Below are positions 17,146 to 26,470 of a stretch of 64,000 nucleotides of DNA, one piece after another (the first letter of the stretch is position 1; the number at the start of each line of letters is the position of its first letter). The DNA comes from Halorarum salinum (GTDB taxonomy: Archaea; Halobacteriota; Halobacteria; Halobacteriales; Haloferacaceae). The position numbers were made by a program, and so were the translations under genes. The stretch is from assembly GCF_013402875.1 (NCBI RefSeq), contig NZ_CP058579.1, positions 3,720,001 through 3,784,000 of the forward strand, written 5' to 3'. The notes below the pieces were generated by a model. It was given only the letters and a program-made list of their open reading frames with translations. It was not told the DNA's origin and did no database searches.

Positions 17146-17574
17146 ATGCTCGAACTACGGCGATCGGCGTACGACGAGATCGTGTACCGGGGGTACGACG
17201 GCGGGGCCGAGGAGGTGTGCGGCGTTCTCGCGGGCACGTACGACGACGAGGCGAGCGTCGTGGACGCGGCGTATCCGGCCGAGAACGTCGCGGAGACGCC
17301 GGAGATTCGATACGCGATGGATCCCGAGGAGCAGTTCGCGATCACCGAGGCCGTCGAGGAAGCCGGACTGGAGGTCGTGGGGTTCTATCACACGCACCCG
17401 GCCGGGCCGACCGAACCGAGCGAAACGGACGCCCGGCGGGCGACCTGGCCGGGGTACTCGTACGCCATCTGCGCGTTCGACGGCTACCCGTTCCTGGGGT
17501 CGTGGCGGTGGCGCGGCGAGGACGACGGGTTCGAACGGGAGACGGTCGCGGTCTCCTCCGGCGGCAGGCGGTGA
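17146..17574 (+). CDS. JAMM/MPN+ metallopeptidase (desampylase or Mec-like)
   Basis: This 142-residue zinc peptidase has a complete JAMM site: Glu at 22/23 (GAEEVCG) and H82-x-H84-P...S92-x2-D95 in FYHTHPAGPTEPSETD. Two roles are known for such stand-alone enzymes. Haloferax HvJAMM1 removes ubiquitin-like SAMPs from proteins; Mycobacterium Mec cleaves the CysO-cysteine adduct to release cysteine. The convergent ubaA, the beta-grasp carrier and the cysteine-synthase-like gene next door make the second role likely here. The protein ends SSGGRR, curiously like the carrier's own tail. A TATA-like TTTTATTC about 27 bases upstream supports a leaderless start. Confidence 0.9.
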   Translation: MLELRRSAYDEIVYRGYDGGAEEVCGVLAGTYDDEASVVDAAYPAENVAETPEIRYAMDPEEQFAITEAVEEAGLEVVGFYHTHPAGPTEPSETDARRATWPGYSYAICAFDGYPFLGSWRWRGEDDGFERETVAVSSGGRR

Positions 17575-17593: not shown

Positions 17594-18442
17594 TCAGTCG
17601 CCCCCGACGTTGGGCTCTTCCTCCCTCGGAATGGCACACGAGGCCGAGTACTCCACGTCGTGGACGGAGTCGATCGCCGGGTCCTCGCCGCAGACGGGAC
17701 AGTCGTCCTTCTTCGTAATCTCGACGGCGTCGAACTCCATCTCGAGCGCGTCGTAGAACACCATCCGACCGTCGAGGAGTTCCCCGACCCCGAGCACGGC
17801 CTTGACGGCCTCCGTCGCCTGGATGCACCCGACGGCCCCCGGCAGTACGCCGAGGACGCCGGCGGTCGCACAGTCGGGGACCATCCCGGCGGGCGGCGCC
17901 TCGGGGAACATGCACCGGTAACACGGCGAGTCGTCGGTCCCCGCGAACGTGGTGATCTGCCCCTCGAACCGGAAGATCGAGCCGTGGGAGAACGGGACCC
18001 CGGCGAGCGTGCAGGCGTCGTTGACCAGGTACCGCGTCCGGAAGTTGTCCGTCCCGTCGATCACGAAGTCGTACCCGTCGATGAGCTCCTCGACGTCGTC
18101 GGGTTCGACCCTGAGACCGTGGGGTTCGACCGTGACGTCCGGGTTGAGTGCGGCGACGAAGTCGGCGGCGCTGTCGACCTTCTTCCGGCCAACGTCGTCG
18201 GTGCCGTGGATCACCTGCCGCTGCAGGTTCGATCGCTCCACCTCGTCGTCGTCCGCGATCCCGAGCGTCCCGACCCCGGCGGCGGCGAGATACTGGATGA
18301 TGGGGGCGCCTAGCCCGCCCGCACCGAGCACGAGCATCTCCGAGTCGAGGAGGTCGCTCTGCCCCTCGGGACCGACGTCGTCCATGATGATGTGCCGGGA
18401 GTAGCGATCCAGTTGTTCCGAGTCGAGGTCGAGACCGCTCAT
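17594..18442 (-). CDS. ubaA: E1-like SAMP-activating enzyme UbaA (MoeB/ThiF family)
   Basis: This 282-residue protein adenylates the C-terminal Gly of small beta-grasp proteins and then forms a thioester or thiocarboxylate. Visible features are the nucleotide loop GAGGLGAP (40-47), RSNLQRQ (70-76), the TDNFRTRYLVND segment, the catalytic Cys in PDCATAGVLG (C191), and two zinc-binding CxxC pairs (C174/C177 and C248/C251). There is no C-terminal rhodanese domain; free-standing rhodanese and TusA genes lie close by. It reads towards the JAMM gene with a 19-base gap. In haloarchaea UbaA serves tRNA thiolation, molybdopterin synthesis and protein sampylation, so its role need not be limited to this cluster. 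Confidence 0.93.
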   Translation of the reverse strand: MSGLDLDSEQLDRYSRHIIMDDVGPEGQSDLLDSEMLVLGAGGLGAPIIQYLAAAGVGTLGIADDDEVERSNLQRQVIHGTDDVGRKKVDSAADFVAALNPDVTVEPHGLRVEPDDVEELIDGYDFVIDGTDNFRTRYLVNDACTLAGVPFSHGSIFRFEGQITTFAGTDDSPCYRCMFPEAPPAGMVPDCATAGVLGVLPGAVGCIQATEAVKAVLGVGELLDGRMVFYDALEMEFDAVEITKKDDCPVCGEDPAIDSVHDVEYSASCAIPREEEPNVGGD

Positions 18443-18617: not shown

Positions 18618-18878
18618 ATGGCGAAACTCAAAGTCCCGGCCGTACTGGGCGACGGTGGCTCCACGACCGTCGAGGTACCGGGGGAGACGCTGGCGGAGGT
18701 GTTACGGAATCACGCCGAGGAACACGGCGAGGGGCTCCGGAACAGCGTCGTCGAGGACGGCGAGATCAAGGAGTTCATCAACGTCTACGTGGACGGGGCC
18801 GAGGTTTCGGGTCTCGACACGGCGGTCGAGGACGACGCGCAGGTCCGGATCATCCCGGCCGCGAGCGGCGGACGGTAA
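18618..18878 (+). CDS. Beta-grasp sulfur carrier / ubiquitin-like protein (CysO/SAMP type) ending GGR
   Basis: This 86-residue protein has the ThiS/MoaD/CysO fold pattern and closely resembles Mycobacterium CysO in the central FINVYVDGAEV (53-63) and final VRIIPAASGG (77-85). Carriers of this kind receive sulfur as a C-terminal thiocarboxylate after activation by an E1 such as UbaA. Here one Arg follows the Gly-Gly (R86), so the active end must be exposed by a protease, as for ubiquitin precursors. The JAMM enzyme of the cluster is a candidate. A TATA-like CTTTTACC lies about 27 bases before the ATG. It is divergent from ubaA and convergent with the synthase. Confidence 0.88.
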   Translation: MAKLKVPAVLGDGGSTTVEVPGETLAEVLRNHAEEHGEGLRNSVVEDGEIKEFINVYVDGAEVSGLDTAVEDDAQVRIIPAASGGR

Positions 18879-18954: not shown

Positions 18955-19971
18955 TCAGTTCAGATAGTCCTCCCACAGCGGGACGTCCGCGTACTTGTCG
19001 CCGCGGTCACACAGCATGACGACGACCGCGTCGTCGGCCGTGAGTTCACCGTCGTCGTCGAGCTGGTGGACCGCCTGGACGCCGGCCCCGCTCGACGTTC
19101 CGACCACGAACTGGTCGTCCACTCGGAGGTGCTCGCGAACCGTGTCCCCGTCGTGCTGACCGGGATCGACGACGTCGACCCGTCGGTCCGCGTACCGATC
19201 GCGGAGCTCGCGGGCACGCGCATAGGCGTCCCCGGTTCCGACGTACTCCGTCCGGTCGAGCACCGACTCGTCGTACGTCTCGGGGCGGTAGTGGTCGCCC
19301 GTCCCGAGATATTTGAGCCCGTCGATGGCGTGGAGCGGCTCTGCCGGTTCGAACCCGACGACCGTGACGTCGCCGCGTTCGTGGAGGCCCCTGCCGGTTC
19401 CGGTGACCGTTCCACCCGTCCCTGCGCCGGCCACGAAGTGGGTCACCTCGCCGTCCGTCTGGTCCCAGATTTCGGGGGCCGTCGTCCGTTCGTGGGTTCC
19501 GGGATTGTCCGGGTTCGCGTACTGGTTCGGCCGATAGTAGCGGTCCGGACGCGACGCGACCAGTTCCTCGCACCGCTCTATGACGGCGTCGTACCCGAGG
19601 TGGGCGTCGACGAAGTGGATCTCCGCCCCAGTCTCCCGGACGGCCTCGACCTTCCCCCCGCTCGCGTTGTCCGGCATCACGATCTCGACGTCGTACCCCC
19701 TCGCCGTCGCGAGCCTGGCGAGTTCGCTCCCCGTGTTCCCGCTCGTGGGTTCGATCAGCGTCCGGTCGGAGGTGAGTTCCCCGCGCCCCTCGGCGCCGTC
19801 AAGCATTCCCTTGGCGATGCGCGATTTCACCGAACCGCCGCCGTGATCGGCCCGATACAGGTTGAACCACTCCGCCTTCGCGTACACGGTCGCCGGAACG
19901 TCGACGTCGAGTTCGAGTAGCGGCGTCTCGCCGATGGTCTCCTCGTCGATGCCGACGGCGGACTCCGACAT
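18955..19971 (-). CDS. PLP-dependent cysteine synthase family protein (CysM-like)
   Basis: This 338-residue fold-type II PLP enzyme has the Schiff-base Lys in GGGSVKSRIA (K49), the substrate loop SGNTG (77-81), the phosphate-binding GAGTGGT (182-188) and the C-terminal GTSSGAG. It would make cysteine from an activated serine. In Mycobacterium CysM takes O-phosphoserine and sulfur from the CysO thiocarboxylate instead of sulfide. Lying beside a CysO-like carrier, this gene is best read in that way, although ordinary sulfide use by an O-acetylserine-type enzyme is not excluded. The ATG at 19971 starts MSESAVGIDEETIG, a normal N-terminus. Confidence 0.88.
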   Translation of the reverse strand: MSESAVGIDEETIGETPLLELDVDVPATVYAKAEWFNLYRADHGGGSVKSRIAKGMLDGAEGRGELTSDRTLIEPTSGNTGSELARLATARGYDVEIVMPDNASGGKVEAVRETGAEIHFVDAHLGYDAVIERCEELVASRPDRYYRPNQYANPDNPGTHERTTAPEIWDQTDGEVTHFVAGAGTGGTVTGTGRGLHERGDVTVVGFEPAEPLHAIDGLKYLGTGDHYRPETYDESVLDRTEYVGTGDAYARARELRDRYADRRVDVVDPGQHDGDTVREHLRVDDQFVVGTSSGAGVQAVHQLDDDGELTADDAVVVMLCDRGDKYADVPLWEDYLN

Positions 19972-20093: not shown

Positions 20094-20393
20094 ATGAGCC
20101 AGCCGAACTGGGAGGACGTCGTCGACCTTCCCGACGAACTCGACGACGAGACCGCCGACGACCTGCTCGGGGACGCCGAATCGGTACAGGACATGACCGG
20201 GGAAGTCTGCCCGTACCCCCAGGTCGAGGCCAAGAAGGCCATCCAGGGCCTCGGATCCGGTGAACTCCTCGTTCAGGAGACCGACCACGTCCCGAGCACC
20301 GAGAACGTCCCGAAGGCGGTCGGGGACCAGGCGGACGCACACGTCTGGAAGAGCGGCGACGGCCGGTACCGCATCTACCTCCGGAAGCGATGA
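20094..20393 (+). CDS. TusA-type sulfurtransferase with acidic N-terminal extension
   Basis: This 99-residue protein contains the TusA domain with the persulfide-carrying Cys in EVCPYPQVEAKKAI (C39). The first 30 residues are very acidic and not part of the usual 75-80-residue domain. TusA proteins relay sulfane sulfur between donors and acceptors in the cytoplasm. It overlaps the next rhodanese gene by ATGA, so the two are translated together and probably hand over sulfur to each other. Confidence 0.88.
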   Translation: MSQPNWEDVVDLPDELDDETADDLLGDAESVQDMTGEVCPYPQVEAKKAIQGLGSGELLVQETDHVPSTENVPKAVGDQADAHVWKSGDGRYRIYLRKR

Positions 20394-20719
20394 CGATGGT
20401 CGAGGAGATCACCACCGAGGACGTGAAAGCGAAGGTGGACGCGGGGGAGGACGTCCAGATCATCGACATCCGCGACCCCGACCAGTTCGCGGCGGGGCAC
20501 GTTCCCGGCGCCGTGAACGTACCCATGTCGGAGCTCCCGTCGCGCGTCGACGAGATCGAGTGGGGCGACGACGTCGTCGTCGCCTGCCCGATCGGCCAGT
20601 CGTCGGTGCAGGCGGCGCGGCTCATCGGGAGCTACGAAGGGGTCGAGGACGACGACGCCGTCCGAAGCATGGCCGGGGGCTACGACGCCTGGGAGTACGA
20701 ACTCGAATCCGACGAGTAA
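20390..20719 (+). CDS. Single-domain rhodanese sulfurtransferase
   Basis: This 109-residue rhodanese has the strand IIDIRDPDQFAAGHVPGA (24-41) and the active-site loop beginning at the Cys of ACPIGQSS (C66). It would form a persulfide and pass sulfur on, probably to the TusA encoded just before it or to UbaA, since E1 enzymes such as MoeZ carry a fused rhodanese that loads the carrier. Either ATG (20390 or 20396) is possible; the first gives the ATGA overlap with tusA. Confidence 0.88.
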   Translation: MTMVEEITTEDVKAKVDAGEDVQIIDIRDPDQFAAGHVPGAVNVPMSELPSRVDEIEWGDDVVVACPIGQSSVQAARLIGSYEGVEDDDAVRSMAGGYDAWEYELESDE

Positions 20720-22738: not shown

Positions 22739-23947
22739 TCAAATCGCACAGCCGACCTCGCGGTAGAGCCAGTGGGTCATCACGTACGTCCCGAGGACGA
22801 TCCCCGCGCCAGCGAGGATCGAGTGGACCGACAGGAGCGCCACGCCGCTGAACAGGTTCGCGATGTTGCAACCGGGTGCGAGCCGCGAGCCGACCCCCAT
22901 GAGGAAGCCGCCGACGACCGGGTTCGGGAGCCGTTCGAGCTTCGGCCACCGGAGTCGAAAGTCGCCCGAGGCTTTGGCCGCCAGGAAGGAGCCGACGACG
23001 ACCGAGAGGATCATGAGCATGTCCACCGTCACGGCGACGCCCTCCCCGCGGAACAGGACCGAGCCCCAGTACTCGATCCCCTCGACGTTCAGGCCACCCC
23101 GCGCGAGGATCCACCCCGCCCACTTCGCTTCGCTCCCGGTGATCGCCCAGGCGCCGTACACCCAGAACCAGACGCTCGCGACGAGCGCGAGGCCGACGCC
23201 GGCGGTCCGCGCGTCCCACGGGTCCCGCAGGCGGGCCTTGAGGTCGCGGTCGTCCGTCCGGAACCCCCGGAGGTAGCTCCGGAGGCCGCCGCCGATCGAT
23301 CGCAGTCCCACCCCCATCGCGGCGAGGCTCCGCCCGGTCGGCGTCACCTGCGCGCGTTCGTCGGCGAACACGCCGGTCCGGCCGTTCGGTTCGTCGGGCA
23401 ACCGCCGCCGTCCGAGGATCAAGGCGTACACCAGCACGGCCGCGGCGGCGATGCCGACGCCCGTGACCGCGGGTGGCCACGGGAGCTGGAGGTAGAGCGT
23501 CGACCCCTCGCCGAACCGGAGCGGCTCGAAGTAGACGGAGCGCAGCGTCGGGAACGAGAACGCGACGACGACGTAGCCGACCCCCATGAACAACAGCGTG
23601 ATCCAGAACTGGACGTATCCCTGTCCGGCGCGGTACAGCGTCCCCGACGCGCACCCGCCGGCCATCGTCATCCCGACTCCGAAGACGAACCCGCCGATCA
23701 ACGACGCGAGCCCCCACGGCGGGATCCAGAACCCGCGGAAGTACCCCAGCGTCGCCTGGAGACTCCAGAACGACGTCATCACGAGCACCCCCGCCAGCAC
23801 GCCCTTGAGGACGCGAGTGTCCTTGAACGCGATGAAGTCCCGGAACGCGCTCACGAAACAGAAGCGCGACTTCTGGAGGAGGACCCCGAACGCGAGGCCG
23901 ACGCCGATGGAGAGCACGACGTACGCTGTCGGCGAGATTGCCGGCAT
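22739..23947 (-). CDS. YeeE/YedE-type sulfur (thiosulfate) transporter
   Basis: This 402-residue membrane protein has about ten hydrophobic segments in two similar halves. It carries the conserved cysteines of the family: SRFCFVSAFRD (C30), AGGCASGTLYRAG (C99) and LAPGCNIANLFSG near residue 365. Family members such as TsuA pass thiosulfate through a cysteine relay. The location between TusA/rhodanese and a rhodanese-fold lipoprotein operon supports import of sulfur compounds for the adjacent trafficking genes. The long middle loop (about 185-240) is hydrophilic. Confidence 0.88.
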   Translation of the reverse strand: MPAISPTAYVVLSIGVGLAFGVLLQKSRFCFVSAFRDFIAFKDTRVLKGVLAGVLVMTSFWSLQATLGYFRGFWIPPWGLASLIGGFVFGVGMTMAGGCASGTLYRAGQGYVQFWITLLFMGVGYVVVAFSFPTLRSVYFEPLRFGEGSTLYLQLPWPPAVTGVGIAAAAVLVYALILGRRRLPDEPNGRTGVFADERAQVTPTGRSLAAMGVGLRSIGGGLRSYLRGFRTDDRDLKARLRDPWDARTAGVGLALVASVWFWVYGAWAITGSEAKWAGWILARGGLNVEGIEYWGSVLFRGEGVAVTVDMLMILSVVVGSFLAAKASGDFRLRWPKLERLPNPVVGGFLMGVGSRLAPGCNIANLFSGVALLSVHSILAGAGIVLGTYVMTHWLYREVGCAI

Positions 23948-25381: not shown

Positions 25382-26470
25382 ATGACCGAAACGAACGGCG
25401 AGCGAGCGACCGGAAACGACGGCGAGCGGACGGGTAGGGACGGTAGCGACCCCGGAACGGTCACGCGTCGTTCCGTACTGGCCGCCACTGCGGGGGCGGG
25501 CCTCGCGAGCACGGCCGGCTGTGCGGGCGTGACCACGCCCGCCGACGTGTCCAACGCCGCCTCGATCGCCGGCAACGTCGGCTACTTTGTGGGGCCACAG
25601 GAGGTGGCCGACACGGACGGAGTGTTCCTCGACGCGCGATCACGGCAGCAGTACCGGAACGAACACGTGTACGGCGCCAGGTTGGCGCCGGTCGAGGCCC
25701 TCACGGCGCGTCGGGAGACTGACGCCGGGTTCGTTCCGGACCCCGACTCGCTGGCGGCCGCGCTCGGTGAAACGGGGGTTGCCCCGACCGACGACGTCGT
25801 GGTGTACGGGAGCAGCGTCGGGTCCCGCGTCACTCGCGTCGTCTTCGCGCTCGAGTATCTCGGCCACAGGGGCGACGTGTTCGTCCTCAACGGCGGGTAC
25901 GACTCCTGGAACGGGAGGGTCGGGAGCGGGATTCGTGAGCCGCGGACGCGTTCCTACGAGCCGGACCCGCGGTCGGATCTCGTCGCGACCCGCGACTGGC
26001 TCGCCGACCGGGTCGGGTCGTTCAACGCGGACGGCCCCGGATTGGTCGACGTCAGACCGCCCGAGGCGTACCTCGCGGCGCGCGGGTCCGACGTGCTCGT
26101 CCGGTCCAACGAACGGCAGGGCCACCTCCCCGGCGCGATCGACGTCCACTGGACGGGGAACGTCGACGGCAGTCGGCTCGCCGACCCCGGAACGCTCGCC
26201 GGACTGTATTTCAACTCCGCGGAGCTCGACACCGGAGGACCGATCGTCGTCTACGGCCAGGGGAACGTCGACCCCACGAACACGTGGGTAACGCTTCGAG
26301 CGCTCGGCGCGGAGGGTGTTCGGCTGTACGACGGCGGATTCGCCGAGTGGGCTAACGTGCCCGCGGAGCTCCGCGGTCGGTGCCCGGTCGAGACGAAGAC
26401 GACTGCCGTCGTCGAGACGAGCGGGGGCCTCGGCGGGAACGACGACGGTGGCTTCTCGTGTACCGGCTGA
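25382..26470 (+). CDS. Rhodanese-fold Tat lipoprotein without catalytic cysteines
   Basis: This 362-residue protein starts one base after the previous stop. It has a twin-Arg signal (TRRSVLAATAG) and a lipobox Cys at 47, then two rhodanese domains in tandem. At both active-site loops the cysteine is absent: the first reads VVVYGSSVGSRVT and the second IVVYGQGNVDPTN. The structural strands (VFLDARSRQQYRNEHVYGA, LVDVRPPEAYL, GHLPGAIDVHW) are kept. It is therefore a non-catalytic binding protein, or it uses the odd Cys near the C-terminus (GGFSCTG). It would sit outside the membrane beside the propeller lipoprotein, possibly serving sulfur capture for YeeE. Confidence 0.82.
   Translation: MTETNGERATGNDGERTGRDGSDPGTVTRRSVLAATAGAGLASTAGCAGVTTPADVSNAASIAGNVGYFVGPQEVADTDGVFLDARSRQQYRNEHVYGARLAPVEALTARRETDAGFVPDPDSLAAALGETGVAPTDDVVVYGSSVGSRVTRVVFALEYLGHRGDVFVLNGGYDSWNGRVGSGIREPRTRSYEPDPRSDLVATRDWLADRVGSFNADGPGLVDVRPPEAYLAARGSDVLVRSNERQGHLPGAIDVHWTGNVDGSRLADPGTLAGLYFNSAELDTGGPIVVYGQGNVDPTNTWVTLRALGAEGVRLYDGGFAEWANVPAELRGRCPVETKTTAVVETSGGLGGNDDGGFSCTG

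What the first reader, a model, noticed from the sequence alone, without database searches (positions are those of the whole stretch)
18848..18878. Carrier ends in Gly-Gly-Arg, so it must be processed before use
Sulfur carriers and SAMPs normally end in Gly-Gly. Here the frame continues one codon (CGG, Arg) before TAA. Ubiquitin-like precursors need a protease to expose Gly-Gly. The JAMM enzyme coded 1.3 kb away is a natural candidate, and its own last residues are SSGGRR, which is curious.
Basis: partly seen in the sequence, partly recalled or inferred. Interest (0 to 1): 0.6.

Follow-up and report, generated by a model that had tools for sequence, protein, structure and literature searches.

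The report
Capped sulfur carrier awaiting JAMM cleavage
A salt-loving archaeon makes a small sulfur-carrying protein with its working end covered by one extra amino acid, and comparison of many related genomes points to a nearby metal protease as the enzyme that uncovers it, probably to feed sulfur into cysteine synthesis.

Summary
The carrier gene is window 18618-18878 (+), 86 aa, and ends Gly-Gly-Arg-stop. It is not a base error. In 22 distinct Halorubrum-type genes the Arg codon is conserved as coding sequence while the bases after the stop are scrambled.
The carrier looks most like mycobacterial CysO by profile and predicted fold. It sits in a conserved cluster: JAMM protease, its own second UbaA-type E1, cysteine-synthase-like PLP enzyme, TusA, rhodanese.
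JAMM uncapping is well supported though not demonstrated. Caps also occur on the SAMP1 and SAMP3 relatives of these archaea, only where the genome has this JAMM type: SAMP1 59 of 210 genomes with it, 0 of 60 without; SAMP3 35 of 62 versus 0 of 18. Genomes without it still have another JAMM.
The JAMM's own SSGGRR end is chance: 0 of 39 relatives share it.
Capped carriers opened by JAMM proteases are already known elsewhere. This is a haloarchaeal variant. The PLP enzyme is not a close relative of M. tuberculosis CysM, so cysteine as product is inferred.

The parts
17146..17574 (+). JAMM/MPN+ metalloprotease, desampylase (HvJAMM1) type; HTHPAGPTEPSETD fits the zinc motif HxHx7SxxD (motif recalled)
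   Evidence: Pfam Prok-JAB 3.8e-19; NCBIfam NF041370 desampylase 144.5 bits, cut-off 130; nearest solved chains 2kcq, 2kks, then entries named JAMM1, 5lda and 5ld9
17594..18442 (-). UbaA/MoeB-type E1 adenylating enzyme, cluster-specific second copy, no rhodanese domain
   Evidence: NF047750 469.9 bits, cut-off 450; ThiF only; 82-85% identical copies beside the carrier plus a 60-67% copy elsewhere
18618..18878 (+). CysO/MoaD-like sulfur carrier, 86 aa, synthesised capped
   Evidence: Pfam ThiS 4.4e-7; profile nearest CysO chains 4n6e_B and 3dwg_C; predicted beta-grasp fold, TM 0.88 and 0.85 to CysO
18867..18872 (+). Gly-Gly, the end to be exposed
   Evidence: translation; invariant in 20 aligned relatives
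18873..18875 (+). Arg codon CGG, one-residue cap after Gly-Gly
   Evidence: codon conservation
18955..19971 (-). fold-type II PLP enzyme, cysteine synthase/CBS-like
   Evidence: PALP 7.1e-52; cysKM subfamily 1.2e-74 but below all equivalog cut-offs; co-occurs with carrier, 21 of 22 genomes
20094..20393 (+). TusA-like sulfurtransferase (CPYP motif)
   Evidence: TusA 5.6e-12; present in 24 of 37 loci
20390..20719 (+). single-domain rhodanese, overlaps the TusA gene
   Evidence: Rhodanese 4.5e-18; present in 27 of 37 loci
22739..23947 (-). YeeE/YedE (TsuA)-like sulfur transporter
   Evidence: Sulf_transp 7.3e-55; present in 19 of 37 loci
25382..26470 (+). two-domain rhodanese
   Evidence: Rhodanese 2.3e-28, 2 stretches; present in 16 of 37 loci

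Best explanation
The gene encodes a capped, CysO-like sulfur carrier. It is translated as ...GGR and cannot be adenylated until the Arg is cut off. The JAMM1/desampylase-type protease of the cluster, which in most carrier genomes is the only one of its type, cleaves after Gly-Gly. The exposed glycine is adenylated by the cluster's own UbaA-type E1, receives sulfur from the TusA/rhodanese relay to form a thiocarboxylate, and donates it to the neighbouring PLP enzyme, most likely making cysteine. Shown from sequence: the capped end, its conservation, the fold, the cluster, the second E1, the co-occurrences. Inferred: that JAMM removes this cap, that the Gly carries sulfur, and that the product is cysteine. 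JAMM may also release cysteine from a carrier-cysteine adduct, as Mec+ does in M. tuberculosis; this is untested.
For: Cap present in 34 of 37 named relatives and variable in sequence and length, as expected of a removed tail. JAMM in 33, E1 in 32, PLP enzyme in 28, rhodanese in 27, TusA in 24 of the 37 loci. In Halorutilus-type loci JAMM and carrier are adjacent, same strand, 29-42 bp apart, 4 of 4. All 24 carrier genomes of 292 have JAMM1, background 215 of 292. Caps on SAMP1: 59 of 210 JAMM1+ genomes, 0 of 60 JAMM1-; caps on SAMP3: 35 of 62 against 0 of 18. Nine carrier genomes have a second UbaA-type E1; 4 genomes without the carrier have one. PLP orthologue (71% identical or more) in 22 of 292 genomes, 21 with the carrier, p=8e-28 not corrected for kinship. 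Carrier closest to CysO by profile (4e-13, 2e-8) and by fold. Precedents: capped carriers PtmS2/PtmS3 and QbsD (PMC6006322), HvJAMM1 cutting a SAMP1-MoaE linear fusion in vivo (PMC4443979), CsJAMM cutting SAMP precursors (PMC6043591).
Against: No biochemical data. Three carriers end in bare Gly-Gly yet keep the JAMM nearby (L036, L039, L071), so JAMM has other work. G042 has PLP enzyme and JAMM but no carrier, so that enzyme can do without it. The PLP profile is nearest to CBS Rv1077, CysK and E. coli CysM; M. tuberculosis CysM is not among the best 60. The cap-JAMM association weakens when kinship is controlled: genus permutation within families p=0.03. 14 of the 18 JAMM1- SAMP3 genes are from one genus. 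Three more distant carrier genomes (G021, G218, G286) have a single E1 and their PLP enzyme elsewhere at 55-58% identity.
Confidence: 0.7

Rival explanations
1. The carrier is a fourth SAMP: after uncapping it is conjugated to protein lysines, and the metabolic neighbours are incidental.
For: The E1 and JAMM pass the SAMP-activating E1 and desampylase cut-offs, and H. volcanii SAMP1 is both a modifier and part of molybdopterin synthase (PMC4443979, passages).
Against: Carrier scores 46 bits against the SAMP1 cut-off of 60; nearest sequence and fold matches are CysO, not SAMPs; strong linkage to a PLP enzyme, TusA and rhodanese.
Confidence: 0.15
2. Same uncapping, but the thiocarboxylate feeds molybdopterin, tRNA thiolation or another product; the PLP enzyme makes cystathionine or uses free sulfide.
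For: PLP profile's best solved match is a cystathionine beta-synthase; the enzyme exists without a carrier in G042.
Against: None of the nine products scanned between 16.5 and 26.5 kb is a molybdopterin or tRNA-thiolation enzyme (not every reading frame there was scanned); carrier and PLP enzyme co-occur in 21 of 22 genomes.
Confidence: 0.2
3. The cap is functionally irrelevant drift, or is trimmed by a general carboxypeptidase; JAMM plays no part.
For: Cap sequence varies between genera; bare Gly-Gly forms exist beside JAMM.
Against: Arg codon conserved within the Halorubrum type; caps on SAMP1 and SAMP3 absent from all genomes lacking JAMM1 although those genomes have another JAMM.
Confidence: 0.1
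4. The CGG is a sequencing error or the stop codon is misread.
For: One extra codon only.
Against: Same end in 24 of 37 named loci, with Arg codons CGG and CGA and with TAA and TAG stops.
Confidence: 0.01

Closest known systems
Capped sulfur-carrier proteins with a JAMM protease (QbsE/QbsD; PtmS2, PtmS3/PtmS1)
   Same: Small sulfur carrier with one or two residues after Gly-Gly (C in PtmS3, MV in PtmS2), JAMM protease gene clustered with PtmS2 (PMC6006322, passages read; the name QbsE is recalled).
   Different: Those serve thioacid natural products in bacteria; this one is haloarchaeal, linked to its own UbaA-type E1 and a PLP cysteine-synthase-like enzyme, and its cap is mostly Arg.
CysO-CysM-Mec+ cysteine pathway of M. 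tuberculosis
   Same: Carrier nearest CysO by sequence and fold; cluster of carrier, E1, JAMM and cysteine-synthase-like enzyme; pathway described in PMC3227635 (passages read).
   Different: CysO chains in the PDB end in bare Gly-Gly (alignments); the PLP enzyme is not a close relative of CysM; the E1 has no fused rhodanese domain.
Bacterial operons of ThiS/MoaD, E1-rhodanese, JAB and cysteine synthase (rows 4c and 4d of Iyer et al. 2006, PMC1779556)
   Same: Carrier, JAB and cysteine synthase in one neighbourhood, with the E1 in row 4c (passages and table rows read).
   Different: Bacterial rows only; separate rhodanese and TusA here; capped ends were not among the passages I saw.
H. volcanii SAMP-UbaA-HvJAMM1 system
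   Same: E1 and JAMM are of these families; HvJAMM1 cleaves after the C-terminal Gly of SAMP1 in a linear fusion in vivo (PMC4443979, passages read).
   Different: Carrier fails the SAMP1 model cut-off and has a second, separate E1.
Caldiarchaeum SAMP precursors with CsJAMM, and ubiquitin precursor with CsRpn11
   Same: Archaeal JAMM removes residues after Gly-Gly from a ubiquitin-like precursor (PMC6043591, passages read).
   Different: Another archaeal lineage; no cysteine-synthase cluster mentioned in the passages read.

Membership tests
Capped sulfur-carrier protein | ThiS/MoaD beta-grasp fold | tested here: met
   Pfam ThiS above cut-off; model pLDDT 89, top fold matches CysO
[quoted passage not shown]
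   34 of 37 named relatives
Capped sulfur-carrier protein | Cognate JAMM protease gene | tested here: met
   JAMM in 33 of 37 loci, 27 within 2.5 kb; 24 of 24 carrier genomes have it
Capped sulfur-carrier protein | Cap is removed and the carrier is then thiocarboxylated | not testable with these tools
   needs protein chemistry
CysO-CysM-Mec+ pathway | Carrier is CysO-like | tested here: met
CysO-CysM-Mec+ pathway | PLP enzyme is a CysM orthologue | tested here: not met
   M. tuberculosis CysM not among the best 60 solved matches of the profile; below the cysM equivalog cut-off
CysO-CysM-Mec+ pathway | O-phosphoserine as substrate | not testable with these tools
   needs an assay
CysO-CysM-Mec+ pathway | JAMM releases cysteine from the adduct | not testable with these tools
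   needs an assay
SAMP1 | Passes the curated SAMP1 model | tested here: not met
   46 bits, cut-off 60
HvJAMM1 desampylase | Passes the curated desampylase model, zinc motif intact | tested here: met
   144.5 bits, cut-off 130; motif read
UbaA SAMP-activating E1 | Passes the curated model | tested here: met
   469.9 bits, cut-off 450; but the genome holds another copy, 65% identical to it

The most novel reading that the evidence does not exclude
In haloarchaea one JAMM1 protease is the general uncapping enzyme of ubiquitin-like proteins (SAMP1, SAMP3 and this CysO-like carrier), so capped ends can exist only where JAMM1 exists. In this cluster the cap is kept by selection as a latch, and the same protease both opens the carrier and releases its cysteine, giving archaea a thiocarboxylate route to cysteine.
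Probability: 0.3. Interest if true: 0.65.

Novelty: new variant of a known kind. Interest (0 to 1): 0.5.

Why it matters
If right, desampylase in haloarchaea is also a processing protease, as eukaryotic deubiquitinases are for ubiquitin precursors. That makes a specific prediction testable in Haloferax or Halorubrum: without JAMM1, capped SAMP1, SAMP3 and this carrier stay inactive. It also offers a candidate protein-thiocarboxylate route to cysteine in archaea, with its own E1. My literature searches did not show the link between capped ends and JAMM1 across haloarchaea; most subscription papers are not in that library.

Tried and rejected
Sequencing error: rejected, the capped end is conserved. 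Meaning in the JAMM's own SSGGRR: rejected, 0 of 39 homologues have GG in their last residues. Cap as a mark unique to this carrier: rejected, SAMP1 and SAMP3 homologues are also capped. 'No JAMM at all' in the JAMM1- genomes: rejected, 77 of 77 have another Prok-JAB match, so the association is with the JAMM1 type only. PLP enzyme as CysM: not supported. A hidden carrier beside the PLP enzyme in G042, G241 and G191: none found by tblastn at E 0.01.

Counting notes. Searches used a start one base off; the frame was wrong, and one search's hit (L001) was left out. 'JAMM1-' means no match to the window JAMM at 1e-6. SAMP1 counts leave out 22 of 292 genomes without a pattern match, 17 of them JAMM1-. 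The stop pattern TRR also accepts TGG. SAMP3 was searched in all 77 JAMM1- and the 77 lowest-numbered of 215 JAMM1+ genomes; 18 and 62 matched; 10 of the 35 capped ones are long in-frame fusions. The 37 named loci and the numbered genomes partly come from the same species; L057 and L060 hold identical carriers, and L040 and L045 come from one bin. One search uses 23 of the 37 (22 distinct). Several named contigs are short, so absence of a neighbour there means little.

Full report
What is there. The carrier gene runs from ATG 18618 to TAA 18878 (+) and encodes 86 residues ending AASGGR. Around it lie a JAMM protease (17146-17574, +), a UbaA-type E1 (17594-18442, -), a cysteine-synthase-like PLP enzyme (18955-19971, -), TusA (20094-20393, +), a rhodanese overlapping it (20390-20719, +), a YeeE/YedE-type transporter (22739-23947, -) and a double rhodanese (25382-26470, +). 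The nearest named relatives are haloarchaea: Halorubrum, Halobellus, Haloquadratum, Halobiforma, Halorutilus.

The cap is real and maintained. One scan of species genomes gave 37 loci. Their ends after Gly-Gly are Arg 24, nothing 3, Gln 2, Gln-Ala 2, and one each of RR, QF, AR, TGQ, TRA and G. Among the numbered genomes I also saw CSP and SR. Within 22 distinct Halorubrum-type genes the cap codon is C in 22 of 22 at position 1 and G in 21 of 22 at position 2, its third base varies, and the 18 bases after the stop are only 27-55% conserved. So the tail is selected within that group, while across genera its sequence and length change. That fits a tail that is cut off.

What the carrier is. It passes Pfam ThiS, but falls under the SAMP1 model cut-off (46 against 60 bits). 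A profile of 20 relatives finds, best first, the CysO chains 4n6e_B (4e-13) and 3dwg_C (2e-8), then 2m19 (H. volcanii HVO_2177; SAMP3 by recall) and, lower, SAMP1. An AlphaFold2 model (pLDDT 89; last three residues disordered) matches CysO at TM 0.88, 0.85 and 0.83, and SAMP1 and HVO_2177 at 0.68-0.70.

The cluster. In the 37 loci a JAMM occurs in 33, the E1 in 32, the PLP enzyme in 28, rhodanese in 27, TusA in 24 and the transporter in 19, some contigs being too short to tell. In four Halorutilus-type loci the JAMM gene is directly upstream of the carrier, same strand, 29-42 bp away. Of 292 genomes of the class, 24 have the carrier, in 9 genera, often in some species of a genus and not others. 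All 24 have the JAMM; 215 of 292 do. An orthologue of the PLP enzyme at 71% or more is in 22 genomes (one split by a TGA, its two parts 81% and 71%), 21 of them with the carrier. Nine carrier genomes tested have two UbaA-type E1s, one 82-100% identical beside the carrier and one 60-67% elsewhere; four genomes without the carrier have one; three more distant carrier genomes (G021, G218, G286) have one.

Caps and JAMM1. In 16 genomes other ThiS-type proteins also carry residues after Gly-Gly. This allowed a test. A SAMP1 end pattern with and without a stop directly after Gly-Gly shows a cap in 59 of 210 JAMM1+ genomes and 0 of 60 JAMM1- genomes, p=6e-8. By genus it is 16 of 53 against 0 of 20, p=0.004. 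Permuting genera within families gives p=0.03, so shared ancestry explains part. SAMP3 repeats it: 35 of 62 against 0 of 18, p=5e-6, though 14 of the 18 are one genus. The 77 JAMM1- genomes all have a different Prok-JAB protein, so another JAMM does not suffice. The names SAMP1 and SAMP3 for the two searched end patterns rest on sequence likeness as I recall it. This is association, not proof.

Mechanism. Published work supports the steps. HvJAMM1 is needed in vivo to open a SAMP1-MoaE linear fusion (PMC4443979). CsJAMM cuts Caldiarchaeum SAMP precursors (PMC6043591). Capped bacterial carriers with one or two residues after Gly-Gly typically need a protease, as exemplified by QbsD, and the JAMM protease PtmS1 is clustered with the capped PtmS2 (PMC6006322). 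CysO thiocarboxylate, CysM and Mec+ make cysteine in mycobacteria (PMC3227635). Bacterial operons with carrier, E1-rhodanese, JAB and cysteine synthase were described in 2006 (PMC1779556), and links of archaeal E1 genes to cysteine synthase were noted in 2010 (PMC2948915). For all these I read passages found by term, not whole papers. From this I infer: JAMM removes Arg, the second E1 adenylates Gly, TusA and rhodanese supply sulfur, the PLP enzyme takes it up.

Against. M. tuberculosis CysM is not among the 60 best solved matches of the PLP profile; Rv1077 CBS, CysK and E. coli CysM are. One genome has PLP enzyme and JAMM without carrier. Bare Gly-Gly carriers keep a JAMM nearby. The product and the sulfur donor are not shown.

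Verdict. The JAMM's SSGGRR end is chance. The system is a haloarchaeal variant of known capped sulfur carriers. The part I did not find in print is the class-wide link between capped ends and the JAMM1 type.

Noticed in passing
G000:C1:1337705 onward (L092), outside the window; also G008, G009, G015, G017, G038, G061, G063, G088, G098: SAMP3-type proteins fused after VAGG to a domain of about 80-90 residues that itself ends KAMRAGG where the end was read. No Pfam match for the added domain. It may be the Halobacteria-only TBP-like Gly-Gly protein of PMC2948915; not tested.
   Followed up: partly
77 JAMM1- haloarchaeal genomes: Only 18 of 77 have a SAMP3-type match, against 62 of 77 JAMM1+ genomes: SAMP3 and JAMM1 may be lost together.
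   Followed up: no
L131-L138 and L140 except L139: ThiS-type matches ending FMFCC, FMFCL, FLFCV or FVFCV instead of Gly-Gly; a halobacterial CC-ended family is mentioned in PMC2948915.
   Followed up: no
G047:C1:1303927-1305423: The canonical UbaA gene lies directly beside a second JAMM1 gene, while the carrier cluster on C2 has its own E1 and JAMM.
   Followed up: no
G038:C1:2525544-2526547 and L053:10787-11203: The PLP enzyme gene beside the carrier is interrupted in frame in these two, possibly decay or sequencing error.
   Followed up: no
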